64,000 nt of DNA. Origin: Marinicella algicola (GTDB lineage: Bacteria; Pseudomonadota; Gammaproteobacteria; Xanthomonadales; Marinicellaceae). This document shows positions 25,317 to 59,522 of this stretch, one piece after another. The position numbers and the translations under genes were made by a program. Every line of letters starts with the position of its first letter. Position 1 is the stretch's first letter. The notes under the pieces were generated by a model. That model made no database searches, had not been told where the DNA came from, and worked only from the letters and a program-made list of their open reading frames with translations. The stretch is taken from positions 1,242,501 to 1,306,500 of the forward strand of contig NZ_JAQOMR010000001.1 in the NCBI RefSeq assembly GCF_028401385.1. The letters are read 5' to 3'.

Positions 25317-25317
25317 A

Positions 25318-26519
25318 ATGACGAAGTCGGACAATGATGTCGTTGTCACGGGTATCGGACTTGTGACCAGTTTCGGTGTCGGACAGGCGCCGCATGTCGC
25401 CATGCTGACCGGAAGCGCCACGCCCGCGGTCAATGTCGACAGTGAAATCTGTGCACCCTATCCGGTGCATCCGCTGCCCGAGATCGACTGGAAAGACCAG
25501 ATCCCGAAACGCGGCGACCAGCGGCAGATGGAGAACTGGCAGCGTCTCGGTGTGTATGCGGCGGGCCTTGCGCTCGACGATGCCGGGGTGAAGGGCAATG
25601 AAGATATCTGCTCGACGATGGACATGATCGTGGCCGCCGGCGGCGGTGAGCGCGATATCGCCGTCGACACGATGATCATCAATGAAGGGCTGGAACGCAG
25701 CGACCGGGAAATTCTGCTCAACGAGAAGCTGACCACGGAATTGCGTCCGACCCTGTTTCTGGCCCAGCTGGCTAACTTGGTGGCGGGCAATATCTCGATC
25801 GTGCAAAAGGTTACCGGTTCGTCGCGCACCTTCATGGGTGAAGAGGCCGCCGGCATTTCCGCCGTTGCCACCGCCTATGCCCGTATTCTTGCCGGTCAGT
25901 CGACGCACACACTTGTCGGCGGGGCCTTTGTTGCCGAGCGGCGCGATATTCTTTTGATGCTGGAAGCCGTTCATGCGCTGTCGCGCGGCGCACGGGCACC
26001 GCTCTGGGATCGTGCAGCCGAAGATGACGGCGGCATGGTGATGGGCTCAGCGGGTGCATTTCTGGTGCTTGAATCACGCGCCTATGCCGAGACGCGCGGC
26101 GCGCATATCTATGCGACGATTTCCGGTGTCGAGGGTGATCGCGGCAAGCGCGACGAGGGCAGGCTTGAAAAACGTCTCGGCCGGCTGTTTGCCGATGCAG
26201 GCTTTGAGGGCGGCGAAGGTGACGTCGTGTTTTCCGGCGCGACAGGCCTTACTGCGCTGACGAAGCGCGAGGCGGATTTCGTCAAGCAAGCGTTTCCGGA
26301 TACCCCGCTTCGCGGCTACACCGGCATAACCGGCCATGCCATGGAAGCCAATTTTCCCTCGGTATTGCGCTTGGCGCGCTGGCGCTCGACAACAAGACAC
26401 CGGTCCCTCTCTTCAATGACGGTGAAGGACCGATGAATGCGCCGGCGCAAAAGATCGCCGTGACCAATGTTGGCCTGCAGCGCGGCGAAGGTGTTGCCGT
26501 GCTGGTTGGCGAAAACTGA
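25318..26519 (+). CDS. fabF2XL: Ketosynthase-like protein lacking the active-site Cys (AcpXL cluster, frame interrupted)
   Basis: KAS-fold protein of about 400 residues starting MTKSDNDVVVTGIG. Where FabF has the nucleophile in ACASG it reads SSRTFMGEEAAG, without Cys. The NAHGT His is also replaced (FSGATGLTALTK), while the second His (GITGHAMEAN) remains. Two of three catalytic residues are thus missing, as in chain-length-factor subunits of KAS heterodimers. The frame breaks at CCC 26356-26358; one added C gives LGIALGALALDNKTPVPLF and the stop at 26519. A pairing with the next gene is inferred. Confidence 0.85.
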
Positions 26520-26533
26520 GAAAGGACCGGCAG

Positions 26534-27817
26534 ATGAGCAGCAAATTTACCGATCATCTGGGCCGTCCGCTCGTCGCGGTGACCGGGATGGGCGTTGTGA
26601 CCTCGCTCGGTCGCGGCCTGAAGGACAACTGGGAACGGCTAACCGCCGGCGTTTCCGGCATTCATGGGATTTCGCGGTTCCCGACAGAGCTTCTGTCGAC
26701 CCGGATCGCCGGTACAGTGGATTTCATCCCTTCCGATCCCAATCCGGTAGCGCGGTCGTACGCGTTTGCCGAGGCGACGATTGAGGAAGCCCTCGAAATG
26801 GCCGGGCTTTCAGGTGATTTCGATGCGCCGCTGTTCCTCGCCGCCCCACCGGTGGAGCCGGAATGGTCGATGCGCTTCAATCTGGGCGACCGTGCGCCGC
26901 CGCCGAAAGAAGATAATGACGTCTATGTCCGCTTTCTGGCGGCCATGCGCGAACAGGCGGATCCGGCTTTCCACGAGGCCGTGATGTTCGGCTCGATCTC
27001 GGAGCGGATCGCTGACCGGTTTGGAACGCGCGGCCTTCCGGTCACGCTGTCGACGGCCTGTGCCTCCGGTGCCACTGCGATCCAGCTCGGCGTTGAAGCC
27101 ATCCGTCAGGGCCGCACCGACAAGGCGATGACGGTGGCCACCGATGGTTCGGTGACGGCCGAGGCGCTGGTGCGTTTCTCATTGCTGTCTGCGCTTTCCA
27201 CCCAGAACGATCCGCCGGAAAAGGCCTCCAAGCCGTTCAGCAAGGATCGCGACGGTTTCGTGATCGCCGAAGGGGCGGCCACGCTCATTCTCGAATCGCT
27301 GGAGGCAGCACATGCCCGTGGCGCCAAAGTCTACGGCATTATCCGTGGTTGCGGCGAGAAAGCCGATCATTTCCACCGGACCCGGTCTTCGCCCGATGGC
27401 GGCCCGGCGATCGCGACCATTCGTGCGGCACTTGAGGATGCGGGGCTCGGCATCGACTCGCTCGATTACATCAACGCCCACGGCACTTCGACGCCCGAAA
27501 ACGACAAGATGGAATATTCCGCTCTCAAGGCCGTGTTCGGTGATGAGCTGATGCCATCCATTCCGCTGTCATCGAACAAGTCGATGATTGGCCATGCGCT
27601 GACGGCCGCGGGCGCAGTGGAGGCAGTGTTCTCTCTGCAGACCATGCTCACGGGCGTGCTGCCGCCGACCATCAACTACATCAATCCGGATCCGACGATC
27701 GATCTCGATGTGGTGCCGAACACGGCGAGGAATGCTTCGGTTTCCTCGGTGCTTTCCAGTTCGTTCGGCTTTGGCGGGCAGAATGCCTGTCTGGTGATGA
27801 CCCGCGAACCGTCCTGA
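26534..27817 (+). CDS. fabF1XL: Beta-ketoacyl-ACP synthase II-like protein (AcpXL cluster)
   Basis: Ketosynthase with the full Cys-His-His set: Cys in LSTACASGATA, His in NAHGTSTPEND, Lys and His in SSNKSMIGHALTAAGAVE. The 427 residues match the FabF family. It should catalyse the elongation condensations on AcpXL, perhaps as partner of the Cys-less homologue that ends 14 bases upstream. The start MSSKFTDHLGRPLVAVTGMG follows AGAAAGGACCGG. Confidence 0.92.
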   Translation: MSSKFTDHLGRPLVAVTGMGVVTSLGRGLKDNWERLTAGVSGIHGISRFPTELLSTRIAGTVDFIPSDPNPVARSYAFAEATIEEALEMAGLSGDFDAPLFLAAPPVEPEWSMRFNLGDRAPPPKEDNDVYVRFLAAMREQADPAFHEAVMFGSISERIADRFGTRGLPVTLSTACASGATAIQLGVEAIRQGRTDKAMTVATDGSVTAEALVRFSLLSALSTQNDPPEKASKPFSKDRDGFVIAEGAATLILESLEAAHARGAKVYGIIRGCGEKADHFHRTRSSPDGGPAIATIRAALEDAGLGIDSLDYINAHGTSTPENDKMEYSALKAVFGDELMPSIPLSSNKSMIGHALTAAGAVEAVFSLQTMLTGVLPPTINYINPDPTIDLDVVPNTARNASVSSVLSSSFGFGGQNACLVMTREPS

Positions 27818-38689: not shown

Positions 38690-38764
38690 TGGTACGCCCT
38701 AGGGGAATCGAACCCCTCTTTCCAGAATGAGAATCTGGCGTCCTGACCGATAGACGAAGGGCGC
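38690..38764 (-). tRNA. tRNA-Glu (anticodon CTC)
   Basis: 75 bases including an encoded CCA. The anticodon loop is TTCTCAT in a CCAGA/TCTGG stem. T arm GAGGGGTTCGATTCCCCT. Reads GAG codons. First of three tandem tRNA-Glu genes. Confidence 0.95.
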
Positions 38765-38842
38765 AAGCGCCCATGAAGGCGCAAACACACTGACGGTAGC
38801 CATCGCTGTTTTGCAGAGGTGGTTGCCGGCTGGCAGACTGAA

Positions 38843-38917
38843 TGGCACGCCCTAGGGGAATCGAACCCCTCTTTCCAGAATGAAAATCTGGCGTCCTAAC
38901 CGATAGACGAAGGGCGC
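38843..38917 (-). tRNA. tRNA-Glu (anticodon TTC), copy 1
   Basis: 75 bases with encoded CCA; anticodon loop TTTTCAT in the same CCAGA/TCTGG stem. Reads GAA. Nearly identical to the copy at 39030 and, apart from a few bases, to the CTC gene, so the array arose by tandem duplication. Confidence 0.95.
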
Positions 38918-39029
38918 GCATCTCAGATCGACGAAACCGCCCATGCGGGGTCGCCGGTCAGCGAAAACACCGTATATCCGGAGCTATACTCCGGACCTTT
39001 CGCAGCAAGGTCTGTCGACCATGTGCGAA

Positions 39030-39104
39030 TGGCACGCCCTAGGGGAATCGAACCCCTCTTTCCAGAATGAAAATCTGGCGTCCTAACCGATAGACGAAGG
39101 GCGC
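39030..39104 (-). tRNA. tRNA-Glu (anticodon TTC), copy 2
   Basis: 75 bases with encoded CCA, same anticodon loop as the copy at 38843. The spacers between the three genes differ, so the repeat unit is confined to the tRNA. Confidence 0.95.
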
Positions 39105-41514: not shown

Positions 41515-42466
41515 ATGGGAGAGAAACGGACGGACGAACTCCGCCAGGATGCGGTGCGGATCGCATTGACCAGTGGACTTACGCGTAAGCAGGTGGCTGA
41601 GGACCCTTGTGTTGGAATATCGACGCTGAACACATGGATTACCACCCACCGAGATACGGATGTTGTGTCACAAGACGATTTGGGCCTCGCCCAGGAGAAT
41701 GATCGGCCTCAGTGCGAGATTCGCTTCCTCAAGGAGGAGCGGGACATCCTAAAAAGCAATGCAGTTCTTCGCGCCAAAAGCCTTGAGGTTCAGGTTCATC
41801 GAAAAACACAGGGATGCGTTTTCAGCCGCCCGTCTATGTCAGGTTATGGATGTCAGCTTGCGTGGGTTGCGTGCGTTCCGCAATAGGCCAGCAAGCCGCA
41901 GGCAGCGATCTGACATGGCGACGGTGGCGCAATCAAGGAGTAATTCCGTCTCATCCTTGGCCGCGATGGCAGCCACGGATGACAGAAGAGTTGAAAGAGA
42001 TCGGACTGGATACGGTCACCGTCGTGTTGGCCGTCTGATGCGCCAGAATGGTATATCCTTGGTTAGAACCGGCAAACACAAGGTCACGACTGACAGCAAT
42101 CGCATGAAGCGTGATCTGGCGATCCGGGCCCTAAAGACGGCAATCGCATTGCGTGCTCCCCCAAAGCACTGCGGTCATCACACGGACCGTGGCAGCCAAT
42201 ATTGTGCGCACGACGACCAAAAGATCCTGCATCAGCACGGGTTCAAGGTCTCCATGAGCGGCAAGGGTAATTGTTACGACAATGCAGCTGTGCAGGCGTT
42301 CTTCAAAACCATCAAGGCAGAACTGATCTGGTGGCGGCCATGGGCAACGCGAAGGCAGTTTGAAATGGTAATCTTCGAATACATCAACGGCTTCTACGAT
42401 CCACGGCGACGCCACTCTGCACTGGGCTGGACAAGCCCCGTCGCTTTTGAACGGAAAGTGGCATAA
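41515..42466 (+). pseudogene. Decayed IS3-family transposase genes (orfA-orfB remnant)
   Basis: The first part (from MGEKRTDELRQDAVRIAL) is an IS3 orfA helix-turn-helix with GLTRKQVAED and a coiled coil. The frame then shifts near 41755 to an orfB start (FIEKHRDAFSAARLCQVMDVS). The orfB middle, including the first catalytic Asp region, is missing. It resumes at SNRMKRDLAIRALKTAIALR, with HTDRGSQYCAHD (second Asp) and the GNCYDNAAVQAFFKTIKAEL glutamate motif, ending SPVAFERKVA. An internal deletion makes it inactive. Intact relatives are common in rhizobia. Confidence 0.8.
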
Positions 42467-42474
42467 ACGAGCGA

Positions 42475-42669
42475 TTGGGCCGGTACGAAACCTTGACAGG
42501 TCCAGCCCGACGAAAACTGGCCCTGTGGCGATATAACGACAACCACGTCAGGCCACATTCCACGCTGTGCAATAAAACGCCGATCGAAGTGCGGCGAGAA
42601 ATGAAAGATTGTGATGCGGGCGCCACCCAGACACTTGCCCACGAAAATCAACCAACTACAAATCACTAA
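42475..42669 (+). pseudogene. C-terminal fragment of a second IS3-family orfB
   Basis: About 64 residues containing LALWRYNDNHVRPHSTLCNKTPIEVRREM, the integrase-core end of a different IS3 subgroup (arm RPHSSLGNKTP). No catalytic residues remain. It touches the previous remnant, showing that one element was cut by the other or by a deletion between them. The autotransporter gene begins about 110 bases later. Confidence 0.7.
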
Positions 42670-42778
42670 CCCGCTTCCGGAGTTTTCGAAAAACTGGACA
42701 ACATTCGTCGCCCTTTTTGTCGACAAGTGCGGTCGATCGCGGCTAGGAATAGGTAAGGGACTGCTGACGTGCCTTGGG

Positions 42779-45700
42779 ATGGGCACGGAGCAGATAACTG
42801 CAAGCTGGCTGGATTGGATGGGGCTGATGGACGATAAGAGCGGATCTATGTGTGTCGAAACCACCGGGCGAAGCAAACCGGGAGATCGTCCCGCTTCAAA
42901 GCCGGCCTCCCGGCCCGGGCGCGGCAAGATCAAGCTCGTCGCATCCTCGCTACTGTTTCAGTCGACCGCGCTTGCGGGAACGCTGGCCGGTGTGCCCATG
43001 CCGTTTTACGGGCGCGGACTTTATTCGCGGGCCTATGCAGCGGCAACCTGCGACCCGTCCGAAGTGCACACCGAATCGGCTTCAGGTGTCAAAACAGACA
43101 ATTTTGATGACCGCAAAGAGGCTATCTATTCTCAGACGATCAGCTGCACGATTAGTTCCGGGACTTTGACCACGACGCAGTATGCCTATAGCGGTGCCTA
43201 TATGGCGGTTACCGATCTGTGGACCGGCAATAGCAGCGAAACCTACCGCGGGCAGACCTATTACGTGCACTCCAACTGGGGCTGGGCCGGTTTTAGTGTG
43301 AACGTCACAAACAATGCGACGATTAAGATTACCGATTCTGCTGACACCCATTTGCTGTTTGAGCCGGGAGATGACATTCCCTACAGCAATCTGCGTATTG
43401 GCAAGACCCAGTCTAACGGACTGAATGCCGTGTCGCTCGGCGCGCTTAACTGGAGCCCGCATGACGATAACAAGAAAACCGGCGGGGGCGATGGCGGCAG
43501 TGTTTCGATCATCAGTTCCGGGGATATCTCAAGCTCGGTTGGCGGCGGCATTTTTGCCCTCTCACAAGGAGGGACCAGTCGGGATACTCACGGCGTTAAC
43601 GGTACCGGAGGTCGGGGTGGACCTGTTTCCGTTTATTCAACGGGAACAGTGTCCGGTGCCAGTTTCGGCATTGCTGCGCTGAGCGTTGGCGGCCCGGCAA
43701 CCTATTCGGATTCCGGCAATTATACCAGCGGTGGTTATGGCGGCCCGGTTTCGGTCTACACATCGAAATCCGTTTACGCGACCACCAGCGGACCGTCTAT
43801 TCTTGCTGCTTCATATGGTGGCAACACACCCTATAACACCAACAGCTTCGACGCAGGTCCCGGTGGAAATGGCGGCGGAAACAACCCTATAAATGACCAG
43901 ATTGTATTTTGGGCTGCCAAGGTGCAGATCGGTTCAGTAAAGACACCGATGACCGGCAAAATCACGACACAGTCAGCCGGGGCTGTTTATCTTGGGACCA
44001 ACAAACAGAGCGTACAGCTCACCCGCAAAACCGGTGCGGCGATCATGGCAATCGCAAGGGCCGGTGATGGTCTGCCCAGTGGCGGCAAGAGTGCAATGGT
44101 AGGCGGGTACGCCATGCCAGTTGAGGTGGCTGTCTTCGGTGGGGCATCGACCCTGCTTCAGACAAACGGTGATTACTCTCCCGGCATTCTGGCTGTTAGC
44201 CAGGGTGGCACGTCATACGAAAGCACCAAGGACGATCACGAAGCGTCGGGCGGCCTAGGCGAAAACGTAAATGTTGCGCTGACGGGAGGAGGAAAGATTA
44301 TCACCAGTGGCGGTGAGTCAAGCGGTATCATCGCGCAATCTCTGGGCGGCGGCGGGACAGGGACCTATAAAGATAACATCTTTTACGGAGTAGGCGGCTA
44401 CGCCAAAGATGTCATCGTAGCGAATGATTTTGCGATCACCACGACCGGTGATCACTCCCATGGGATCGTCGCACAGTCGGCCTCCGCTGCCGATGGCGAC
44501 GGGATTTATATCAATAACAGCAATGATGCGCTGACCTGGGGCGACACCAGCGCCAGCGGTTCGACCAGCAGCGATGTGACGGTGATCAATTCGGGTAATA
44601 TCACCGTATATGGCATCGATCTCGCACGGCATTGTCGCCCAGTCCATTGGCGGCGGCGGCGGCCTGTTGCAGTCCACCGCGACGATATCGACCGCGAGTT
44701 CGGGTTACAAGAACGGTTCGCCGATTTCCGATCCGACCGGCGGACAGACGATCGGCGGGCAGAACTACGGCTCCGTTCCTGCCACGGTGACTGTCATCAA
44801 CAAGGGCAATATTTCGACCTATGGCGGCTATGCCGGCGCCAAGACTGCCGCCAGCAGTTCCGACGCAACGGAGCTTGGCGGCGGTATCGCCATTCTGGCG
44901 CAGTCGATCGGCGGCGGTGGCGGCACCAATAGTGGCGTGGGCGCGACGGGCGCGATCGGCGCAGGGAAAAGCGCCAGTTCGGCGGGCCTGAAGAGCAGCA
45001 GCAGCGAAGACGGCAGCAATGGCGGTGCTGTCAATGTCATCAATTCCGGCAATCTTGCCACGACCGGTTCGGAAGCGCACGGCATCGTTGCACAGTCGAT
45101 CGGTGGCGGCGGTGGTCAGGGACGCAACAAGAAGGGTCTGTTCCACACCGTCGGCGGCAGTGGTGGGGGTGGCGGCTACGGCGGTGTCGTCAAGGTTACC
45201 ACCGAAGCCAACACCGCGATTACACTGAAGGGCGATTATGCGATCGGGATTGTCGGCCAGTCCGTGGGCGGCGGCGGCGGCGTCGGCGGCCAGGCAACCG
45301 CCTGGGGTATCGGGTTTTCAAGCTCCACCGGCGGCAGCGGCGGTCCCGGCGGCGATGGCGGCAATATATACGTGACCCAATCCGGGTCAGGCACCAAGGG
45401 TGCAAGCGACTACAGCGTGGTCTCGACGAAGGGTGATCATGGCACCGGCATTCTGGTGCAGTCGATCGGCGGCGGTGGCGGCGTTGGTGGCAATGGAAAA
45501 TCGACCAGTGTCGGCGCCGGCGTCTCTATTTCCAGCGCGCATGGCGGATCCGGTGAACATGGCGGCGGTGGCGGCGATGCCAAGGTCGATATCAACGGTG
45601 TGGTATCGACGTCCGGAACGGATGCCCAGGGTATTGTCATTCAGTCGATTGGCGCCAGCGGCGGCAGTGGTGGTCAGGCTTCTTCGAAGGCGATCGCTGC

Positions 45701-48700
45701 AGGCGTACCGTTCGATGAAGACGGCAACACGATATCACTTTCCATTTCCATGGCGCATGGCGGCACGGGCGGTGCCGGTGGCGATGGCGGCACGGCAGAG
45801 GCCAATATCTACAAGACATCCAGAATCATAACGACCGGCGACGGCGCGGCCGGGCTTGTCATTCAGTCGATCGGCGGCGGCGGCGGTAATGGTGGCGACG
45901 CGACCGCGAGCTCCGTCTCAAAATCGATTACGTCATGGCTGAACGACGGTGACGATGATGATGACGACGATGCCGATACAGATGAAGACGAAGGTATGAA
46001 TTTCGCCGTTTCGGTGAATTCCTATTTGGGCGGTACCGGTGGCGGTGCCGGGAGCGGCGACAAGGTGAGTGTCAGCCATGTCGGTGCAATCAGCACGACG
46101 GGCAACTATGCAGACGGCATTCTGGCGCATTCGATCGGCGGCGGCGGCGGCAATGCCGGCACCGGTTCCGGCTCGACCAAGGCCGCAAAAGGCATCAAGT
46201 CCGCGGCGTTCAATGTCGGTCTGGGGGCCAGCGGCGGAAAGGGCAATAGCGGCGGCAGCGTCGATGTCCATATGGACGACAGCGCGGCCTCGATCTACAC
46301 CCGCGGGCATGTGTCACGCGGGATTTTCGCCCAGTCGATCGGCGGCGGCGGCGGTTCCTCCTCCGGCGGTGGTGGCATGGGTGATGCCGACTGGGGTCTC
46401 ACCATCGGCCTCGGGGCCAGCGGGGAGGCAGGTGGCGATGGCGGTTCCGTCGTGATCTCGAGCGAAGGCACGATCGTGACCAGGGGCGACTGGTCGGATG
46501 CGATCCTGGCGCAATCGATCGGCGGCGGCGGCGGGGCAGCCGGCTCAGGCAAGAGCTCGCTCTCGATCAAGCAGGACGAGGATGACGACAGCGATGATGA
46601 TGACGACGACGCAGAATCAGCGGATGAGTCCATGTTCGTGTTTGCGTCGTCAGACGACGATGACGACAGCGACGATGACAGCGACAGCGACGACAAGGCT
46701 CTTACATTCGGCGTAACCGTCGGTGGGGCCGGCGGCTATGGTGGCTACGGCGGGAGCGTGACCATCGGCCAGGATAGCTCCGGCACGGTGGTCGGGACCG
46801 GGACGATCCATACCTACGGCACGATGTCTTCAGGCATTGTCGCTCAGTCGATCGGCGCAGGCGGCGGCTCGGTGGCGGTTTCCTCGGGCAGCGATGATTC
46901 CGACGACAGCAGTTCTTCCAGTTCGTCGGACAGCTCCGACAGCAGCAGTTGCGACAGCTCGAGCAGTAGCTCCAGCAGCGACGATTCCAGCTCGGGCGAC
47001 AAGGATAGCTGCATCAATTTGACCCTTGGGTCCGTTGGGGGCGATGGGGGCGATGGCGGCGACGTCTCGGTTTATGCCAGTAACATCTATACCGCCGGCT
47101 TCGCATCGCATGGAGTGGTCGCCCAGTCGATCGGCGGCGGCGGCGGCGGCGGCGTGTCCTCCGGCCTCGCGGTCTCGAAGGTCAAGATCAAACTCGGAGG
47201 CGGCGGAAGCAGCAGCGGCGGAGAGGGCGGTGCGGTGACCGTTACCACGCTGGCCGGCTCCAAGATCGAAACCAAGGGCGAGGCGTCCCACGGCATCGTC
47301 GCCCATTCGATCGGTGGCGGCGGCGGCCTTGGCATGGTGGCGCTCGGCACGGCGAGCAAGGTCAACGACGACACGCTGAAGGACATACTCTCCGTCAAGC
47401 TGGGAACCTCTGGCTACCCGCCTACCTCCCGCGACTCCGTCGATGGTGAGGCGGTCACCATTAGCCACAAAGGCGCTCTCTCCACGGCGGGTGAGCGCGC
47501 GGTCGGCATTGTGGCGCAGTCGATCGGCGGCGGCGGCGGCTTCGTCACGGCATCGGAAGCGGTGCTGAATTCGGTCTCGTTCGAGACGAAACAGGCAAGG
47601 GCCGGCAGTCGCGACGTCACCGTCACCCTGCACGACGGTGCGTCGATCGTGACAAGCGGTGACGGCGGCGTCGGCATTCTGGCCCAGTCGGTCGCCGGCG
47701 GTGGCGGCGTCGCGGCGGATCTGAACGCCAAGTTGAACACTTACTATGTTGACTTCGACAAGGGCACTTACACGTCGAGCGGCTACGGCGGCTACAATCA
47801 CCAGTCGGGGACCGTCACGGTTTCGGTCAATTCCGGCACCTCGATCGCGACTACGGGAAAGTATGCCCACGGCATCATCGCCCAGTCCGTAGCCGGAACA
47901 GGGGCATTTTTGAGAAGAACGGCAAGACCTATGCCGGATCGTTCCACCGCAACAGCTATAACAGCGATGGGATCGTCAGCGTAACCGTCGACGGAACGGT
48001 CAAGGTCAACGCCGACAACGCCTGGGGCATCTGGTCACAGACCCAGGAGAACAAGATAACCGTGACGGTGGGTTCGTCGGGCACGCTCTCGGGTCCAAGC
48101 CCGTCCGACGGCAATGGTGGCGCCGCACACGCGGCTCTGAGCACCGACGGCACGGCGACGTTCGATAACTCCGGTACGGTTGCCGGCAACGTGGTCCGAT
48201 CCATCGCCGGCGAGGAAGACTGGTCGAAGGTCTACGCCTCCAGTAAGTCGGCGGCCGCCGACGGTGCCGTCCGGCTCAGTACCGTGCCGCTCGCCAGCCA
48301 GGCGGTGTTCCTCAACCAGGGCCGCGGCACGTTCGTCACCGGCGCGATCGCCGATGTCGATACCGTGCTGAATGCCGGCACCATGAACATCGGCGGTGAA
48401 TGGAATCTGATCGAGACGATGGTAACGGGCGATCTCGTCGGTATCGGCACAGCGGATGCGGGCAGTGCCTATGATGTCGCAGGCATCGGCCTTTCGACGG
48501 AATTCTCTCCGTTCGGCTATTTCCGTCGCAGCGAACAGAAGGACTGGCGGACCGCGACTTCAAGCAGGGGCGGCCTGATCTCCGGTCTTGATGTCGACAT
48601 GGAACATGGCATTGCCGACAAGCTTTTGGTCCGAGGCGATTTCGCGGGCACCTGGGGCGTCGATGTCAATGCCAACGCATTGCTCCCCAACACCAGAACG

Positions 48701-49969
48701 GAGTTCCTCAAGGTCTCTGGCAGCGACACCTCGGACCTTTCGATCCTGTCATCGCTGGTGTTTGACTTTACCGATGCCAGTACCTCACCCGAAGGCTGGA
48801 CCGGCTTCTCGGTCGCAAGCGCCCATTTCGCCAATAATGGCGTATCGCTCGGTCGCAACGGCAGTCAGGCATCTGCTGCCCTGCAGCAGGCCTGGGACAG
48901 GGTTGAGAACGGTTCGGCAACCGAGGTCAAGTTCGGTGATGACGAGATCTCGCTCGGACAGGTCTTTGGGGCCTTCCATCAATCGACGCCGGAGACCTTC
49001 TCCGACATGCTGATGGAAACGATCTCGCAAACGGCGGCCGCGCCGCTTTCGTCTTCGCCTTCGGCGGCGATCAGCGCGGCCAACAGCGTTCTGTCCTGCC
49101 CGGCTTTCGAGACGTCGGGCGTGATGATGGATGAAGGCTCATGCGTGTGGAGCCGTGCCCTGGGTGGTGAAACGACCCAGGACAGTCAAGGCGACGAGGC
49201 CGGCTATACCCAGTCGAAAGGCGGTCTGCAGATCGGCGGCCAGATGGAGCTGCGGGACGGCTGGTTCCTGGGCTCCGGATTGACCTATGAGAGCAGCTGG
49301 TTCCGCAATGACAACGGCACACAGAAGCTGGATCAGGATTCGTTCGTGGGCGCCGTCGCATTGAAGAAGGAAATCGGTCCGTGGCTGTTCGGCATTGTCG
49401 GCGGCGGCGGTTACAATTGGGGCGATTCCAAGCGCTATATCAACCTCGACACGCTTTCGGCGACGGCAACCGGCAGTCCGGATTCCGCGATGTTCTTCGG
49501 GCGGTTCCGGGCGTCCTATGAAGTCGCGCTCGGTGATGCGTATTACATGCGCCCGCGGGTCGATCTCGACGCCATCAACATGCATCAGTATGGCTATACC
49601 GAAAGCGGCGCAGGTGCGCTCAATCTCATGGTTGACGGCAATTCCGACACCGCTTTCGGCGTGACGCCGGGGATCGAGTTCGGCGCCCGCATCCCGTTCC
49701 TCGAAGACTGGCCTGCGCGGCTATACGGCGATCTTGGCGTGTCCTTCATCTCTGCGGATGAATGGGAGACAACGGCGCGATTTGCCGGCCTGTCGTCGAT
49801 GGAAAGCTTCTCGACCTTTGCCCCGATTGCAGACACAGTCGGGCATGTGACGCTCGGCCTTGATCTCGCCAAGCGGCAGGGCATGGAGCTGAAGCTGCAA
49901 TATGACGGCTCATTCGCCGATGACTATCGCTCCCACACAGGCTCGCTGCGCTTCGGATACAGGTTCTGA
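42779..49969 (+). CDS. Giant autotransporter adhesin-like protein (type Va secretion; two frame interruptions)
   Basis: About 2,396 residues. After a long signal region (KIKLVASSLLFQSTALAG) and a Ser/Thr/Tyr-rich head comes a Gly-rich passenger with some 17 copies of a motif like HGIVAQSIGGGGG, then a linker. The C-terminal domain of about 280 residues has alternating aromatic strands ending LRFGYRF, as expected for a beta-barrel translocator. Three acidic or Ser/Asp-rich blocks sit in the passenger. Frame changes at 44614-44622 (one extra or two missing) and in G4 at 47901-47904 (one missing) cancel. Start uncertain (42779, 42818 or 42848). Confidence 0.83.
44300..47900 (+). repeat. Periodic Gly-rich passenger repeat of the autotransporter
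   Basis: Degenerate unit of roughly 55-80 residues: a Thr-Gly-Asp or Thr-Lys-Gly turn, H/S-G-I-V/L-A-Q-S-I-G-G-G-G-G, then a Gly/Ser/Ala loop. Copies include AHGIVAQSIGGGGG, GTGILVQSIGGGGG, SRGIFAQSIGGGGG, SHGVVAQSIGGGGG and AVGIVAQSIGGGGG. DNA copies share the core ATTGTC-GC-CAGTCGATCGGCGGCGG with many silent differences, so the repeat is old and selected at protein level. Confidence 0.85.
45948..47001 (+). repeat. Asp-rich and Ser/Asp-rich low-complexity blocks in the passenger
   Basis: Block 1 (about 45948-45996) encodes DGDDDDDDDADTDEDE. Block 2 (46573-46698) encodes two Asp/Ser runs flanking ESADESMFVFASS. Block 3 (46885-47010) encodes a Ser/Asp run with two Cys. They interrupt the repeat units and use mixed GAT/GAC codons, so they are not simple one-codon slippage tracts. 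Confidence 0.8.
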
Positions 49970-50125: not shown

Positions 50126-51245
50126 ATGCCGCGCGCCGATGCACCGGGCGCGCAGGCGTCCCAGCCTCAGGAAATGCAAACGCAGATCAGTTGTTCACGC
50201 GGGTTTCCGCAGTGGCTTGCGATGAACAACTGTTCGCTTGCCTTCACGTCCTATCAGAGCGGCCAGCTGTTTCTGGTCGGTGTTCTGGGCAATGGCTCGC
50301 TATCGCTTCACCAGCGCAATTTTGTTCGCGCCATGGGCCTGATCGGCGACGACCAGCGGCTGTTGCTGGCCGGGCTGGCGCAGATCTGGCGTTTTGAAAA
50401 TGTGCTCGGCCCCAATGAGCGGGCCAATGAACAGTTCGACCGGCTCTATGTGCCGCGCCGCGGCCAGACGGTCTCCGACCTCGATGTCCACGAACTCGGC
50501 ATTGACGCTGCCGGGCGGCTGTTGTTTGTGAATACAAAATACTCCTGTCTGGCAACTGACAGCGTGGTTCATTCCTTCAAGCCGGTCTGGCGGCCGCCCT
50601 ACATCTCGAAACTCGCCCCGGAAGATCGCTGCCACCTGAACGGGCTCGCCATGGAAAACGGCGTGCCGCGCTTCGTCACCTCCGTTTCAACCACGGATAT
50701 CGTTGACGGATGGCGCAATCATCGCCGCGATGGAGGCGTCATTGTCGACGTCCAGACCGATGAGATCATGGCCGAAGGGCTTTCCATGCCGCACTCTCCG
50801 CGCCTTCATCAGGGCGCGTTGTGGTTTCTGGATTCGGGTAATGGCTACCTCACAAGGCTGGACCGTGAGAGCCGGAAACGTGAGCGCGTGGCGTTCCTGC
50901 CGGGCTTTTTGCGCGGCCTTTCCTTCCATGCCGGCCATGCCGCCGTCGGGCTTTCTCGCCCGCCGCGAGGGCGTATTTTCCGGGCTGAACCTGCAGGATG
51001 AGCTTGAACAGCGCAAAGCTGAAGCGTGGTGCGGTGTTCAGATCGTCAACACCAACAATGGCGATATCGTTGAATGGCTGCGGCTGGACGGCGGCATCAA
51101 GGAGCTTTTCGATGTGCGGATCCTGCCCGGTGTGCGCTGCCCGATGGCCCTTCCAACATTCGGTCCCGACCTTGCAAGCTTCATCACCATCGAAGCCCCG
51201 GACCAGCCGCTGTCTGAACGCGGCTGGCATCCTGCGGCCACCTGA
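50126..51245 (+). CDS. TIGR03032-like conserved protein (frame interrupted)
   Basis: About 372 residues. SRGFPQWLAMNNCSLAFTSYQSGQLFLVG and SPRLHQGALWFLDSGNGYL look like the TIGR03032 (DUF4915) family, a predicted beta-propeller of unknown role. The frame changes near 50951-50956 (one extra T or two missing), after which VFSGLNLQDELEQRKAEAWCG and LDGGIKELFDVRILPGVRCPMA continue the match. No signal peptide is seen. It follows the autotransporter by about 155 bases on the same strand; a functional link is inferred only from position. Start could be ATG 50126 or 50174. Confidence 0.65.
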
Positions 51246-52841: not shown

Positions 52842-54149
52842 TCAGGCCGTAACCTTGACCCTGTTGCGTCCTTCAGTTTTTGCGATGTAAAGCGCCTTGT
52901 CCGCTAGGCCGACGATATCGGGCTGGGTAGCCTGCGGGTTGAAGACAGAGACCCCGATACTGATAGACAGGCGAGCTTCCGTGCCGTCCGGCAGGATCAT
53001 TGTCTGCTCGAACACCGCCTTGCGAACACGCTCGGCTATCGCCGCCGCCTCATAGGCGCGCAGGCCGGGTAGCAGCATCACGAATTCCTCGCCGCCATAG
53101 CGGAAGGCATGATCTTCCCGCCGCGCCGCGCCTGCGATGATCTGCGCCACCTGGCGAAGGATGTCATCACCGGCAAGATGTCCGTGGGTATCGTTGAACT
53201 GCTTGAAGTGGTCGACATCGATGATCAACAGGGAGAAAGGCTCATCGGTCTCGCGAGCCGCATTGATCTGCGCGTCGAGCACACGGTCGAATTCACGCCG
53301 GTTGTCGAGGCCGGTCAACCCGTCGGCGCGCGCCGACGCGGCGAGCTCGTCTTCCTGCTGGACGATTTGCTTCAGCATTGAATTGAAGGCCTGTGCCACG
53401 GAAGCCAGTTCCGGCGGCACGGTGACGTCGATTTTCCGCCCGCGCTCGCCTCCGGCAACCAGCATCGCGCCCTCGACAAGTTTGTCAGTGCTGCGGATCA
53501 GCGCCTGGTCGATGATGTAGATGCCGACGCCCGCAAAGACGATCGCCAGTGTGATCGCGATCATCGCGAATGTCTCGAGGCGCTTCATCGCCGCCAGCGC
53601 CCGCGCATGGCTTTCCTCGTTGAGCAGCCGCATGCTCTCGGCGATGGATCCGACACGTTTACCGGTCTCCGCGACGACACTTTCGAACCGCAGCAGCACC
53701 GGATCCGCATTGCCGTCAGAGGCTTCGACGCTTGCGGCCGTCTGCAGCAGCTGCGACCATTGCTGGTTTACGCTTTCAAGAATGGGCCTGAAGCCTGGGT
53801 AATCATCCGTGACCTTCTCGAGGTCGCGCAGGTGAACGGCGACATCGCGTTCTGCAGCTTCAAAGTCCGTGCGAAAGTGCTCCTCTCCGCTATTTGCATA
53901 ATCGTTGACTGCTGCGGAAATATCCCAGAGCTCGCTTTGGATGCGTTCCAGCGACACCAGAACGCGGTGCTGGGTATGCAGGACATCGCGGAAAGGTCCG
54001 GCGATCTGCTGTTTGTACTGAACATACCAGACAGCCGTCAGGATGATGACGGGCAGAAGAGCCATCAGGAAGCCAAACACAAGCCAGGCCCTGAGGGACA
54101 GGCTCTGAAACCACGTCCCGACCGGTCCGACCTCGCGTTCATCTTCCAT
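52842..54149 (-). CDS. Membrane diguanylate cyclase (GGDEF domain)
   Basis: Makes cyclic di-GMP. The 435-residue product has two membrane helices (about 21-43 and 194-217) flanking a helical periplasmic sensor of about 150 residues, a HAMP linker, then a GGDEF domain. The active site is RYGGEEF, and the inhibitory I-site RRED stands five residues before it, so product feedback is expected. I choose ATG 54149, with AGGAG nine bases upstream; an in-frame start 90 bases earlier has no such site. It could link c-di-GMP to surface adhesion. Confidence 0.9.
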   Translation of the reverse strand: MEDEREVGPVGTWFQSLSLRAWLVFGFLMALLPVIILTAVWYVQYKQQIAGPFRDVLHTQHRVLVSLERIQSELWDISAAVNDYANSGEEHFRTDFEAAERDVAVHLRDLEKVTDDYPGFRPILESVNQQWSQLLQTAASVEASDGNADPVLLRFESVVAETGKRVGSIAESMRLLNEESHARALAAMKRLETFAMIAITLAIVFAGVGIYIIDQALIRSTDKLVEGAMLVAGGERGRKIDVTVPPELASVAQAFNSMLKQIVQQEDELAASARADGLTGLDNRREFDRVLDAQINAARETDEPFSLLIIDVDHFKQFNDTHGHLAGDDILRQVAQIIAGAARREDHAFRYGGEEFVMLLPGLRAYEAAAIAERVRKAVFEQTMILPDGTEARLSISIGVSVFNPQATQPDIVGLADKALYIAKTEGRNRVKVTA

Positions 54150-54405
54150 ACGGAAATTCTCCTGCTGCCTCATCAAGGCTGGTGCCGACGGAACAAGGGA
54201 CTCGCGAACGGGAACTGTTCCATTTCCGTCGGCGCGCATGGTGGTGAACGAAAACGGTACGCCTTATCCCAAGCCGCGATAAAAGCCCGCCTGCGCCTTT
54301 GTTTCAACTATCTGCAAGTTGTTTTAAGTGCGGCCGGTTGCGCTAGAGGTGGCTCGGTTTGTTTGAACAGTTTCGGGCGTTTTGCTAAGTGGATTTCCGC
54401 CTTGA

Positions 54406-55236
54406 TTATGCTGCCACCATCATCGGTGTCAGCGCGTTGAAGTAAGCCTGATCCGGCGTCTGCCGTTCAAGGGATGAATGTGGGCGTCGGGTGTTGTAGA
54501 AGGTCAGATAGCGACCGATGCCAGCGCGGGCTTGGGACACAGTCTTGTAGGCGTGGAGATAGACCTCCTCGTATTTAATCGACCGCCAGAGCCGCTCGAC
54601 GAAGACGTTATCCCGCCACGACCCCTTGCCATCCATAGAGATGGCGATTTCGGCGTTCTTCAGCACCGCCGTGAGGTCGATAGCGGTGAACTGCGATCCC
54701 TGGTCGGTATTGAATATGTCGGGTTTGCCATAACGAGCAAGCGCTTCCTCGACGGCTTCGATGCAGAAGGCTGCCTCCATCGTGATCGACAGCCGCCACG
54801 ACAGCACCCTCCGGCTAAACCAGTCGACGACGGCGCAGAGATAGACGAAGCCGCGCGCCATGGGGATATATGTCAAGTCCATAGCCCAGACTTGGTTGGG
54901 CCTGGTAACCGCCAGCTTGCGCAGGAGGTAGGGATAGATTTTGTGCCCAGGTGCCGGTTTCGACGTGTTCGGGCGACGGTATATCGCCTCGATGCCCATC
55001 CTCTTCATCAGCGTGGCGACGTGCAGCCGCCCAGTTACCAGCCCTTCTCCCCTCAAGAGCCCTGACAACATCCGGCTTCCGGCAAACGGGTAGTCGAGAT
55101 GCAGTTCATCGATCCGGTGCATCAGAGCCAGATCGCCGTCAGAGACTGGACGAGGCCGATAATAGACATTGCCACGGCTGAAGCAGAGAAGCTTCGCTTG
55201 GCACACGACGGATAGCTTATGCTCGCGGTCGATCAT
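54406..55236 (-). CDS. IS3-family transposase OrfB
   Basis: 276-residue DDE integrase. The catalytic Asp residues are in VWAMDLTYIP and FNTDQGSQFT, the Glu in FVERLWRSIKYEEVYL. RPHSSLERQTPDQAYF closes the core. Full length. It starts MIDREHKLSVVCQAKLL just downstream of OrfA, as in elements that join OrfA and OrfB by programmed -1 frameshifting. Confidence 0.9.
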   Translation of the reverse strand: MIDREHKLSVVCQAKLLCFSRGNVYYRPRPVSDGDLALMHRIDELHLDYPFAGSRMLSGLLRGEGLVTGRLHVATLMKRMGIEAIYRRPNTSKPAPGHKIYPYLLRKLAVTRPNQVWAMDLTYIPMARGFVYLCAVVDWFSRRVLSWRLSITMEAAFCIEAVEEALARYGKPDIFNTDQGSQFTAIDLTAVLKNAEIAISMDGKGSWRDNVFVERLWRSIKYEEVYLHAYKTVSQARAGIGRYLTFYNTRRPHSSLERQTPDQAYFNALTPMMVAA

Positions 55237-55322
55237 TTCTTGTCCCCGGCAATCCCGCCTTGCCGAGCGCTCCGGCTATCGCAGCCGAGACCCGTGGCTC
55301 AGCGGAGCATCGTTCTCCGGCG

Positions 55323-55568
55323 TCAGCTCGCCGATCTTGGCATGAAGGGTTTTGACATCGACAGTTGGTCCCACGGCTCCGACTTCGCTTCATCGCCAAA
55401 AACGCCTGTCGCCCCCTCAAGGAGCTGACCCTTCCATTGCTTGATCTGGTTGGCGTGCACGTCGAACTGCTGGGACAACTCCACCAGCGTCTGCTCACCT
55501 CGGATGGCGGCCAGCGCCACCTTTGCCTTGAAAGCCGGGCTATGGTTCCGGCGCGGTCGTCTCGTCAT
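55323..55568 (-). CDS. IS3-family OrfA (frame disturbed)
   Basis: Starts MTRRPRRNHSPAFKAKVALAAIRG and contains the helix-turn-helix TLVELSQQFDVHANQIKQWK. The expected leucine-zipper end (VKTLHAKIGELTPEND) continues in another frame from about 55390, so the gene as read stops early. Probable sequence error or decay. Confidence 0.7.
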   Translation of the reverse strand: MTRRPRRNHSPAFKAKVALAAIRGEQTLVELSQQFDVHANQIKQWKGQLLEGATGVFGDEAKSEPWDQLSMSKPFMPRSAS

Positions 55569-55621
55569 GGTATCTCCTGTTCCCGGCATCTAAGCCGAAG
55601 TCAGGCAGAAATTCCACTTAT

Positions 55622-56536
55622 CCCCGTTGTGCAGATTTCCCGAGCCAACTCTAGATCATCGAGAATGGTGGACAGATAGAACCAGCCCCAGCCGATTACC
55701 TTCAGATAAGTGAAATCAGTTTGCCACATCTCATTGGGCCGAACAGTCTTGTCTTTGAATTCGTTGTCTGCCTTGACGATGATAAAAGCCGGCGAGGTGA
55801 TCAGGTCGTGCGCCTTGAGCAGGCGATAAACGGAAGCCTCTGATACAAAATAGCTTTTCGTGTCTGTGAACGTCACCGCCAGTTTGCGCGGCGACAGTTC
55901 CGGCTCGTCAAGCGCCAGCTCGATCAGGTCTTCCCTGACATCGTCGGGAATACGGTTCCACACCCGTGACGGGGCGGATGAGCGATCCTCCAGACCTTCA
56001 ACGCCAAGCCGTTGGAGCCGGTCGTACCAGCAGTAGAAAGTCTGTCGTGGAATGCCGAGCTGATCCAATGTCATCTTCACCGGCAAATGCGATTGTTCAA
56101 CCAACCGGATGATTTCCAGCTTTTCGGATGCGAGGTATCTCATTCTTCGACGCCCCCATCCGCTATCATGCTTTTTGAGCAGGCGCAGCTCCAGTGTCTG
56201 CTCGGCCACGACCTCTTTCAGATCGCGCGCTTCACGGCGCAACGTCTGCACCTCATCCGTGATCGCGGCCCGTGCCGTATCACCGGCCAGGCGCCGCTTG
56301 CCGGCCTCCAGAAACTCCTTCGACCAGGTGTAGTACATGCTTTCGGCGATACCCTCGCGGTGGCAGAGCGCGGCGATACTGTCTTCGCCACGCAGGCCTT
56401 CCAGCACGATACGGATCTTTTCTTCAGCCGAATAGGATTTACGTGTGGCACGGCGGATATCCTTGATCGCCTTGTCTGCGCTCGACTTCTGCTGCCCGGA
56501 CTTCTGTCTCATCTTGGCTTCCTTTGCGTGAGCCAT
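55622..56536 (-). pseudogene. Truncated IS3-family transposase (OrfA-OrfB)
   Basis: Contains an orfA-like part (YSAEEKIRIVLEGLRGEDSIAALC) followed in the same frame by orfB (MRYLASEKLEIIRLVEQSHLP, ELSPRKLAVTFTD, MWQTDFTYLKVIGWGWFYLSTILDD). It ends abruptly after the first catalytic Asp region, and beyond that the sequence belongs to the neighbouring element. OrfA and OrfB are normally in different frames, so their fusion here is odd. The missing half is not found left of 54386. Confidence 0.78.
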
Positions 56537-56702
56537 GATGAGACAGAATCCTCCCTTATCCGTTAACCAGCATCTGTCTCAAAGGCGTTGAGACGGAACA
56601 ATATGCATTGCCTGTGGCTGGTGGAGTCGAAGATAAATGCGCTGGATCAGGCAGCGCTACCACAAGGGTGGACGCAGCCAGAGAGTTCTCACCATCACGC
56701 CG

Positions 56703-58475
56703 TCATTTGATCCCACCCTCAAGGGCTGAGGTCATTGCCACGATTATGTCGTCTGTCGCCTTATAGGCACGGAAGCGGGCGATCGGGTCGTAGCCGGGCG
56801 TGATCATGTTCATGTGGTCTATGGCACGTTGGGCACCATGGTGATCACCAAGAAGATTTTCCGCCATTGCAACCAGCGACTGGCTGAGCGCCGAGCCGTC
56901 AGAAGATGCCCGGATGGCAAATGCCAGCATGGCCTCGCCATCGCCACGCATCAGCTGGTCGATTGACAGCAGGTGATAATACGGCCCTGGCGGATTGACC
57001 GTCCGCTCGATGGCCTCTTCTATCAGCGGCACGCCTTCGGAAAAGTGTCCGCGGATCGCAAGCCGCCAGCCGAGCTGGTAGAGCGCTTTGGGATTGAGCT
57101 GGATTGCAAGGCGAGCAAGGCGCTCGGCATCCTCGTAATTCTCCCGCAGATACTGGACAACCGAAAGCGTCTTGATGCCGAGAATGTTCTCAGGTTCGAT
57201 CTGGATCGCGCGCAGTGCAAAATCGGCGGCACTGTCGAGCGTAATTTCCGGATAATCGGGAATGATGCTCATGGCAACGGATGTGAAATGCATGAAGCCG
57301 AGCATTGCCCAGGCCTCCGCGTCGGACGGGTCTCGCGCGACTGCCGCCTCCAAGCACGCCTTAATCGGGGCATGCAGCTTCGGCTCATAGGTATGACGGA
57401 AATAATATCCGCGCAGCACGCACTCGTAGTTCTCGGTGCTCGGTCCCGGATCATCGGGGAGGGTTCTGGCAATATCCGCATTGATCACCCAAAACGGCTG
57501 GGCGAGCGCGGAGGCAAGGCTGGCGGCTATTTCTTGTTCGAGCGCCCTGGCATCGTGCGAGCTCAGAGCCCGGTCGTAATAACCCGTCCATACCACGCGC
57601 CCGGTCCCGCTTTCGATGAGCCGAGCAACAACGGTGACAAGCGGACCGCGGGTCCAGAAATCTCCGGCAAGCACATATGAAACGCCCCATTGCCTACCAA
57701 GTTCGGCCGGATCCGTGTCCGGCTTCTGAGACAGGCCCTGGCGGGGATCGTAAAGCGACAGCCCCTGAAAACGGTTCAGATCGCCGACGATGCGGCTGAC
57801 AATGCCGAGCGCCAAGAATCTGTCATTATCATTGTCGCTGAATACCTGTAGAGGCAGCACGACGAGTGAGGGTCTCTCTGTGCCCCCTTTCGGCTTCTCT
57901 GCTGCCAAGAACCTTCCCGCTTCGGCACCTAAAAGGACCAGAACGGCCGCAAAAATTGCCATAACGCGCCAACGCCGGAGCAAACCGCCCGTATTCCTGG
58001 CTTTAACGGGTTCCGCCTCGGTCGGCTCTGGCACATCAGGGGCAAGCGGCAATTGCCGGGTTATTGAGGGAACATAACCGCCAACGGGGATGGAAATCCT
58101 CAGCTTGTCACGCCTGCCGGCCTCCGAATAGTAAACGCCGAGGTCGTTGCGCAAACGGCGTGCCTCGAGCCGAACGACCGGATCGGCACCCGGGTCAAAA
58201 TCATCCGCGCGCGCGAAAACATGCACGCCGATTGTGTAGCCCTTCAGCTCGTTAGCACGACCGGCAAGGGTTTCTTCGACAACAAAGGAGAGCATTTCGC
58301 GCCGCAACCGTGTCGCGCGGAACGAAGAGCTAGCAAGTATCCGGCAAAGCTCTGCCCTGATGTCATCGGGACAAAACTCCTCCATTGTTGAAATGTCGAA
58401 ATCTGCCTTCCGCTCCAAAGCGCGGCCTCCTCGGAAGTCAATTCCCTTGTCTCTCGGAAGATTTCCCGTCGGCAT
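56703..58475 (-). CDS. Membrane TPR protein with N-terminal winged-helix-like domain
   Basis: 590 residues. The N-terminal 130 residues (LRREMLSFVVEETLAGRANELKGYTIGVHVF; PVVRLEARRLRNDLGVYY) resemble the DNA-binding-like domain of alphaproteobacterial membrane regulators. One membrane helix follows at about 172-192, then a FlgO/adenylate-cyclase-associated segment (LVVLPLQVFSDNDNDRFLALGI; VSYVLAGDFWTRG) and several TPR-like helical pairs. Such proteins are thought to control nearby genes from the membrane; the sulfatase cluster downstream is the candidate target, by position only. Confidence 0.7.
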   Translation of the reverse strand: MPTGNLPRDKGIDFRGGRALERKADFDISTMEEFCPDDIRAELCRILASSSFRATRLRREMLSFVVEETLAGRANELKGYTIGVHVFARADDFDPGADPVVRLEARRLRNDLGVYYSEAGRRDKLRISIPVGGYVPSITRQLPLAPDVPEPTEAEPVKARNTGGLLRRWRVMAIFAAVLVLLGAEAGRFLAAEKPKGGTERPSLVVLPLQVFSDNDNDRFLALGIVSRIVGDLNRFQGLSLYDPRQGLSQKPDTDPAELGRQWGVSYVLAGDFWTRGPLVTVVARLIESGTGRVVWTGYYDRALSSHDARALEQEIAASLASALAQPFWVINADIARTLPDDPGPSTENYECVLRGYYFRHTYEPKLHAPIKACLEAAVARDPSDAEAWAMLGFMHFTSVAMSIIPDYPEITLDSAADFALRAIQIEPENILGIKTLSVVQYLRENYEDAERLARLAIQLNPKALYQLGWRLAIRGHFSEGVPLIEEAIERTVNPPGPYYHLLSIDQLMRGDGEAMLAFAIRASSDGSALSQSLVAMAENLLGDHHGAQRAIDHMNMITPGYDPIARFRAYKATDDIIVAMTSALEGGIK

Positions 58476-58679
58476 TTATTCGTAAAGCGTAATTCATCCG
58501 CTGGCGATTTTCCATCAACGATTTCAAATATAAGTCAGGCCTATTTTTCCAGAGTGCGGGTTCCGTGAACTATTAAATATTTATGATCAAACGAAAACTA
58601 CTGAAAAGTCAGCTCAATTAGGAAAAGAACCTAGGCTCTGTACTGGTGATCGCTACATGTTCGTACAGTGCGAACCTAG

Positions 58680-59522
58680 GCTCAGGACCTATTAAATCAC
58701 TTGCGACGTTCTCTTCGTTTTGATTCATTGGACTCGAATGGAGAACCGCAATGAGTGATTTGCCGCTGCTGTCGCAGGCGCAGATGCGCCGGATTGAACC
58801 TTATTTCCCGCTGTCCCACGGTGTGCCTCGTGTTGATGATCGGCTGATCGTGAGCGGCATTGTCTTTGTCTTGCGCAATGGTTTGCGATGGCGCGATGCG
58901 CCGAAGGAATATGGACCGCACAAGACGATCTATAATCGCTTCATCCGCTGGAGCAGGCTTGGTGTGTTCAACAGGATTTTCGCTGAATTGGCGGCCGAAT
59001 GCGGTGAGCCGGAACAGTTGATGATCGACGCCACGCATTTGAAAGCACATCGCACCGCAGCCAGTCTGCTAAAAAGGGGATGTTCCCAGACGTATCGGGC
59101 GCACCAAAGGCGGCCTGAACTCCAAGCTGCATGCGGTTTGCGATGGCCATGGCCGACCACTGATCATGCTGTTGAGCGAAGGGCAGACGAGCGACTACAA
59201 AGGTGCTGCCCGAATGATAGAATCCTTTCCCAAAGCAAAGACGTTACTGGCCGACAAAGGCTACGATGCCGACTGGTTTCGAGAGGCCTTGGCGGAGCGC
59301 AAAATCAAGGCCTGCATTCCATCGAGGGCGAACAGAAAGGTCCCAATAGCGCATGACCGCAAGCTCTACCAAAAGCGTCATAAAATCGAGAACATGTTTG
59401 GCAGGCTCAAGGACTGGCGCCGAATTCACACCCGATACGACCGTTGTGCACACACTTTCTTCTCAAGCATATGCATCGCTGCTGCTGTTATCTTCTGGCT
59501 ATGATTTTAACGAGTCCTGAGC
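58680..59522 (+). mobile_element. IS5-family (IS427-like) insertion sequence with target duplication
   Basis: 843 bp bounded by inverted repeats GCTCAGGAC (58680) and GTCCTGAGC (ending 59522), each flanked by CTAG (58676-58679 and 59523-59526), a 4-bp target duplication. Size and single split transposase fit the IS427 subgroup. Its clean ends suggest the most recent insertion here. Confidence 0.88.
58751..59504 (+). CDS. IS5-family transposase (frame interrupted)
   Basis: N-terminal MSDLPLLSQAQMRRIEPYFPL, LRWRDAPKEYGPHKTIYNRF and the first Asp in LMIDATHLKAHRTA. After a break between 59070 and 59095, where two bases appear to be missing, the frame continues GRTKGGLNSKLHAVCDGHG, LADKGYDADWFREAL and a C-terminal Glu region (RHKIENMFGRLKDWRRIHTRYDR). 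251 residues after repair. IS427 elements can use programmed frameshifting, but two missing bases fit error better. Confidence 0.82.

What the first reader, a model, noticed from the sequence alone, without database searches (positions are those of the whole stretch)
42779..49969. Giant autotransporter with periodic IVAQSIGGGGG repeats and acidic blocks
The repaired gene encodes about 2,400 residues. Its passenger carries about 17 copies of an HGIVAQSIGGGGG-like motif and is broken by Asp-only and Ser/Asp-only tracts, one with two Cys. Acidic tracts inside a Gly-rich repeat passenger look like a calcium-binding or extended-spacer design. Autotransporters with the repeat are known in alphaproteobacteria; I do not know the acidic inserts as a described feature.
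Basis: partly seen in the sequence, partly recalled or inferred. Interest (0 to 1): 0.7.

Follow-up and report, generated by a model that had tools for sequence, protein, structure and literature searches.

The report
Autotransporter with acidic surface loops
A very large surface-protein gene of the bacterium Martelella, broken in this assembly, carries stretches made almost only of aspartate and serine that probably hang as floppy negative loops from a rod-shaped repeat body, and intact relatives in two other strains carry the same loops.

Summary
The sequence features are real. The window, from a Martelella-like genome, holds a type Va autotransporter gene spread over three frames: 42611-44932, 44610-47984 and 48062-49969, the last with a PF03797 barrel. 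I count 17 GIVAQSIGGGGG-like motifs and acidic blocks at 45942-45995, 46572-46694 and 46884-47012, the third with two Cys.

Twelve intact Martelella members examined are single frames of 2118-2545 aa; 2 of 12 (M. mediterranea IOP_24, M. limonii) carry blocks B and C, as does a broken paralogue in this genome. All four acidic members have the Cys pair. AlphaFold gives a beta-solenoid with the blocks in low-confidence loops of one repeat slot. The acidic passengers form one clade, but the window's barrel goes with a non-acidic paralogue (p-AU 6e-10): passengers and barrels were exchanged.

Most likely a surface adhesin with polyanionic disordered loops; cation bridging is inferred. The main passenger frame has no RTX or EF-hand pattern. 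Antigen 43 has short acidic protruding loops (PMC8993888, passages). New variant of a known kind.

The parts
42611..44932 (+). Frame 1 of the autotransporter gene: signal region and N-terminal part of the passenger; the family resemblance ends near 44.6 kb, where frame 2 takes over
44610..47984 (+). Frame 2: main repeat passenger with 15 motif copies and the acidic blocks
45942..45995 (+). Acidic block A: 18 residues, 13 D/E; expanded here only, 12 residues with 6 D/E in L017 and L021
46572..46694 (+). Acidic block B: 41 residues, 25 D/E, with a short hydrophobic interruption; also in L017, L021 and L015
46884..47012 (+). Block C: 43 residues, 38 D/S, with two Cys (46950-46952, 47010-47012); also in L017, L021 and L015 with the Cys pair
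48062..49969 (+). Frame 3: end of the passenger and C-terminal beta-barrel (PF03797 at about 49145-49906)
   Evidence: nearest barrel L016 of M. limonii, 93%
50126..51245 (+). Downstream DUF4915/TIGR03032 gene, split over two frames; a neighbour, not shown to belong to the system
41515..42466 (+). Upstream remnant with integrase-core (rve) domains of a transposase, in two frames; context only

Best explanation
A type Va autotransporter of a family found in Martelella. Its passenger is a long beta-solenoid of units mostly about 55-75 residues long, each opened by a GIVAQSIGGGGG-like motif. Each unit has one loop slot, between the glycine run and the strand before GGxGG, that tolerates inserts. 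In one passenger lineage two neighbouring slots (B and C) hold tracts of 34-50 residues made mainly of Asp or Ser/Asp, which would hang from the rod as disordered negative tufts; tract C is probably closed by a disulfide. The product is most likely a surface adhesin or aggregation protein, whose tufts bind divalent cations or cationic surfaces without a specific site. Shown: anatomy, recurrence, slot position, exchange of passengers and barrels. Predicted: solenoid and disorder. Inferred: surface retention, disulfide, cation bridging. The window's copy is split over three frames, so as assembled it would not make the whole protein.
For: Barrel PF03797. Twelve single-frame members examined. Blocks B and C at the same alignment columns in window, L017 and L021, and in the frames of L015. 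Cys pair in 4 of 4 acidic members, 18-21 residues between; none at that place in L016 and L018-L020. AlphaFold2 solenoid, pTM 0.67, low-confidence stretches 26-52, 245-283 and 346-391 equal to A, B and C. Acidic clade 100/100 on the passenger; the same three rejected as a clade on the barrel, p-AU 6e-10. Codons of the blocks are mixed (GAC 27, GAT 17 for Asp). Asp is kept more often in the blocks than in the flanks: 27 of 36 v 14 of 31, 30 of 38 v 16 of 31, 30 of 36 v 19 of 31.
Against: Only 2 of 12 intact members have the blocks, so the family works without them. Loops without acid in later units also have low confidence, and the model rests on seven sequences. Foldseek gave no PDB match at E <= 0.001. 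The better keeping of Asp may come from aligning low-complexity sequence. Ser codons in the blocks lean to AGY (20 of 35 v 43 of 141, p 0.005), as slippage between GAC and AGC would give. No experiment bears on adhesion or cations.
Confidence: 0.45

Rival explanations
1. Neutral expansion: the tracts are low-complexity growth in insert-tolerant loops and have no function of their own.
For: Length varies (B 41-50, C 34-45 residues); block A is expanded in the window only; AGY-rich Ser codons and a 15-base hexamer-type run; slot B of L016 has a weaker Ser/Asp tract; 10 of 12 intact members lack the blocks.
Against: Composition, the two Cys and their neighbours recur in four members that differ by about 13-26% in the flanking protein where compared; codons are mixed rather than pure repeats.
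Confidence: 0.3
2. The Ser-rich tract C is a site of modification (glycosylation or phosphorylation), like the Ser-Asp region of staphylococcal Sdr proteins.
For: Block C is 27 Ser and 11 Asp of 43. Sdr regions are glycosylated by enzymes encoded beside some of their targets (PMC8561734, passages). An uncharacterised gene, DUF4915, lies next to 4 of 9 loci.
Against: DUF4915 sits beside L014 and L020, which lack the blocks, and not beside L021 or L015, which have them; no enzyme function is known to me for it; its PDB search gave nothing below E 0.3 and its model failed, pLDDT 36.
Confidence: 0.13
3. Specific calcium sites that drive folding after export, as in RTX proteins.
For: Asp-rich and Gly-rich; in L017 and L021 (not in the window) the Asp runs happen to match an EF-hand-like pattern. 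Cah is titled a calcium-binding autotransporter in a reference list (PMC9289746).
Against: 0 RTX, EF-hand or DxDxDG patterns in the window's main passenger frame; the blocks are predicted unstructured and the strands do not contain them; the matches in L017 and L021 lie inside Asp runs, where such a pattern is expected.
Confidence: 0.07
4. The splitting of the window gene over three frames is an assembly or read error, not decay (a question apart from what the blocks do; the blocks stand either way).
For: 8 of 20 orthologue ORFs that could be compared (of 143 queried) are split too, all at about G000:C1 1.344-1.370 Mb, one with 97% identity in both pieces. 7 of 10 PF03797 barrels here lie in frames under 740 aa against 3 of 62 in five other Martelella genomes.
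Against: Genes at 30-41 kb of the window match Martelella orthologues in one frame. Small indels against relatives do not gather at runs of 3 or more (36 of 116 and 26 of 88; a noisy test). The neighbourhood has transposase remnants, as a decaying region would.
Confidence: 0.45

Closest known systems
Antigen 43 and other self-associating type Va autotransporters
   Same: Type Va layout and beta-helical passenger; Ag43 variants have two protruding loops with negative residues that form acidic patches without known role (PMC8993888, passages)
   Different: Ag43 loops are 11-14 residues; here blocks B and C are 34-50, nearly pure Asp or Ser/Asp, and one holds a Cys pair; the passenger frames match no Pfam or NCBIfam family
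Autotransporters with a passenger Cys pair (IcsA, VacA, Ssp-1)
   Same: Few Cys and a close pair; IcsA has it in the middle of the passenger (PMC9769942, passages)
   Different: There the commonest spacing is 11 residues near the passenger's C-terminal end; here 18-21 residues lie between, in mid-passenger, around a Ser/Asp tract
Staphylococcal serine-aspartate repeat proteins (ClfA, Sdr)
   Same: Surface proteins with a Ser/Asp low-complexity tract
   Different: Those have 25-275 SD repeats (PMC8561734, passages); here short mixed tracts sit as loops in a Gram-negative autotransporter
RTX proteins
   Same: Exported, rich in Gly and Asp
   Different: No RTX nonapeptide pattern in the main passenger frame and its own barrel; RTX definition from the abstract start of PMC3034196

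Membership tests
Type Va autotransporter | C-terminal 12-strand barrel, PF03797 | tested here: met
   E 4.6e-39, profile 1-255 of 255; the strand number itself was not tested
Type Va autotransporter | Passenger and barrel in one polypeptide | tested here: not met
   Not in the window as assembled, three frames; met in the 12 intact homologues examined
Type Va autotransporter | Beta-helical passenger | tested here: inconclusive
   AlphaFold2 gives repeated strands with high confidence, but no significant PDB match
Type Va autotransporter | N-terminal signal peptide | not tested
   A long basic then hydrophobic N-terminus can be read in frame 1; no predictor was run
AIDA-I/Ag43 self-associating autotransporters | Passenger homologous to AIDA/Ag43 repeats | tested here: not met
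   No Pfam or NCBIfam family at E <= 0.01 in frames 1 and 2; no PDB sequence match at E <= 0.1 with the block region
AIDA-I/Ag43 self-associating autotransporters | Causes cell aggregation | not testable with these tools
   Needs an experiment
RTX proteins | Tandem calcium-binding nonapeptides | tested here: not met
   Simple pattern GGxGxDx + hydrophobic: 0 in frame 2; frame 1 not scanned
Staphylococcal SDR proteins | Array of 25 or more SD repeats | tested here: not met
   Block C is 43 residues of mixed Ser and Asp, not an SD array

The most novel reading that the evidence does not exclude
The loops are a working module: an open Asp tuft and a disulfide-closed Ser/Asp tuft, side by side on a beta-solenoid and moved between barrels as one passenger type, by which the bacterium tunes aggregation or binding to surfaces or minerals through bridging divalent cations.
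Probability: 0.18. Interest if true: 0.6.

Novelty: new variant of a known kind. Interest (0 to 1): 0.36.

Why it matters
It shows that the insert-tolerant slot of a Gly-rich autotransporter passenger can hold Asp or Ser/Asp tracts of 34-50 residues and a mid-passenger Cys pair with 18-21 residues between. That bears on how much disorder, charge and pre-formed disulfide the type V route accepts. The exchange of passengers between barrels is a natural experiment on which parts must fit together.

Tried and rejected
Calcium motifs; frame 2 of the window has none, L017 and L021 match only inside Asp runs. Pure triplet slippage: longest exact runs in A, B and C are 11, 15 and 9 bases. Plasmid source: tblastn of the L021 block region against 72,556 plasmid records, no match at E <= 1e-5, low-complexity filter on. 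Wider occurrence: 4 of 299 order-level genomes (own included) and 3 of 369 class-level genomes (own included) matched; at most 2 or 3 candidates per genome were scored, so these are lower bounds. Of the five outside proteins (two seen only in part) one, L098, has an Asp-rich loop in the same slot (10 D/E in 20); the other four have at most 5-7 in 20. DUF4915 as a modifying enzyme: nothing useful. Homopolymer test of the breaks: inconclusive. A clean recombination point: not found. The 15-row barrel tree has long branches and one row (L014) that begins out of frame, so I rely on the 9-row tree; that still holds one long branch, its window + L016 pair has support 76/100, and the clade tested was named after one search had been seen. 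A search for papers on Martelella with loose terms gave nothing used.

Full report
WHAT IS THERE. The window lies in a genome of 4,672,801 bases in two contigs. Its 30-40 kb part aligns at 81-83% DNA identity over 8-10 kb with M. lutilitoris and M. radicis, so I take it as Martelella or very near. The gene occupies three + strand frames, 42611-44932, 44610-47984 and 48062-49969. The third holds a full-length autotransporter barrel (PF03797, E 4.6e-39; TIGR01414, E 3.3e-15). The two passenger frames match no Pfam or NCBIfam family at E <= 0.01. I count 17 motif copies, 15 in frame 2 and 2 in frame 1, and the acidic blocks were matched by 0 of 5000 shuffles on each of three measures.

THE FRAMES. 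One scan returned six Martelella loci, L016-L021, each with one frame of 2282-2423 aa. Six further members, taken from matches in three of those genomes, have one frame of 2118-2545 aa. These twelve are not a full census. Two paralogues in the window's own genome, L014 and L015, are broken as well. Decay or assembly error cannot be told apart here. Genes at 30-41 kb match relatives in one frame, while the DUF4915 gene next door is split. Of 143 ORFs of M. radicis, 20 had an orthologue in the stretches compared, and 8 of these 20 are split, at about 1.344-1.370 Mb. Seven of ten PF03797 barrels in this genome lie in frames under 740 aa, against 3 of 62 in five other Martelella genomes, one of those three at a contig start. 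The fraction of bases in ORFs of 300 aa or more is 0.28-0.61 in 12 stretches of this genome and 0.45-0.90 in 11 of M. radicis.

THE BLOCKS. A (45942-45995) is 18 residues with 13 D/E; B (46572-46694) is 41 with 25 D/E; C (46884-47012) is 43 with 38 D/S and two Cys. B and C lie at the same alignment columns in L017 and L021 and appear in the frames of the broken paralogue L015. Between the two Cys are 19, 18, 18 and 21 residues in window, L017, L021 and L015. L016 and L018-L020 have no Cys at this place. A is expanded only in the window. L016 has a weaker Ser/Asp tract in slot B, and L075 an acidic stretch near its N-terminus. So 2 of the 12 intact members carry B and C.

SLOT AND FOLD. All three blocks lie between the glycine run of a unit and the strand that precedes GGxGG. 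AlphaFold2 on window 45846-47666, with seven sequences, gave pTM 0.67 and mean pLDDT 68.9; the repeated strands mostly score 80-94, and the stretches 26-52, 245-283 and 346-391 below 50 coincide with A, B and C. Three later loops without acid are low as well (437-455, 495-531, 564-585), so low confidence belongs to the slot and does not prove that the acid causes disorder. Foldseek gave no PDB match at E <= 0.001; the best rows are weak and mixed, many of them beta-helices, with Ag43 (4kh3) at E 4.8. The profile of the block region found no PDB sequence at E <= 0.1. L098, a relative from another genus of the order, has an Asp-rich loop in the same slot.

EVOLUTION. On the block region window, L017 and L021 form one clade (100/100 among 7 rows). 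On the barrel the window is nearest L016 (93% identity); the pair's own support is only 76/100, but holding window, L017 and L021 together costs 69 log-likelihood units, p-AU 6e-10 (the clade was named after the tree, and one row is a long branch). By DNA identity the window is nearest the acidic clade up to about 47.4 kb and nearest L016 from about 48.4 kb, with no clear nearest relative between. In the own genome the barrels of L014 and L015 pair (98/97) although only L015 has acidic blocks. Passengers and barrels have thus been exchanged. Asp is kept more often in the blocks than in the flanks in all three pairs compared, but aligning low-complexity sequence favours that. Ser codons in the blocks lean to AGY (20 of 35 against 43 of 141, p 0.005), which hints at slippage and speaks for the neutral rival.

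NEIGHBOURHOOD. Upstream are a tRNA-Pro and a transposase remnant; downstream DUF4915, a GGDEF protein, two IS3-family transposases and a DUF4096 transposase. DUF4915 lies beside the autotransporter at window, L014, L017 and L020, and not at L015, L016, L018, L019 or L021.

HOW IT MOST LIKELY WORKS. By analogy with type Va proteins the product would pass through its own barrel and fold outside into a rod. B and C would form neighbouring negative tufts, the second probably closed by a disulfide. In sea water (habitat of Martelella recalled, not from a call) such tufts would carry Ca and Mg and could bridge to other cells, polysaccharide or mineral. All of this paragraph is inference. Against a specific calcium site: no RTX, EF-hand or DxDxDG pattern in frame 2. 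Against need: 10 of 12 intact members lack the blocks.

WHAT IS KNOWN. Ag43 variants have two loops of 11-14 residues that protrude and form acidic patches without a known role (PMC8993888, passages). Autotransporters mostly have few Cys; a few have one pair, commonest spacing 11 residues near the passenger's C-terminal end, and a large disulfide loop made before export hinders it (PMC9769942, passages). Cah is named calcium-binding in a cited title (PMC9289746, passages and reference list). Staphylococcal SD repeats are glycosylated by enzymes encoded beside some targets (PMC8561734, passages). Three autotransporters of Rhizobium leguminosarum had passengers with no clear known relative (PMC2275737, passages). 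Searches for autotransporter with the motif string and with Martelella found no paper. The library holds open-licence papers only.

VERDICT. A real feature; a new variant of a known kind; function unproven; the window copy is broken as assembled.

Noticed in passing
window 50126-51245; L014 9330-10391; L017 7221-8552; L020 9960-11141: DUF4915/TIGR03032 gene just downstream of the autotransporter at 4 of 9 loci; the five other Martelella genomes have one copy each, this genome an intact and a split one.
   Followed up: partly
L014, L015 and window 42611-49969: All three members of this subfamily in the window's genome are broken, and 7 of 10 autotransporter barrels lie in frames under 740 aa.
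   Followed up: partly
G000:C1 about 1.344-1.370 Mb (L100, L101): 8 of 20 comparable orthologue ORFs are split over frames, one at 97% protein identity: assembly error or recent decay.
   Followed up: partly
L098 (G202), residues about 1085-1110 of the long frame: A relative in another genus has an Asp-rich loop in the same slot, perhaps of separate origin.
   Followed up: no
window 52842-54239 (-): GGDEF (diguanylate cyclase) protein beside the adhesin cassette.
   Followed up: no
window 54406-59356: Two IS3-family transposase genes and a DUF4096 transposase gene close together.
   Followed up: no
window 38690-39104 (-): Three tRNA-Glu genes in tandem, anticodons ctc, ttc and ttc.
   Followed up: no
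window 22992-27817 (+): Radical SAM gene followed by two ketoacyl-synthase-like genes; may be a lipid or polyketide cluster.
   Followed up: no
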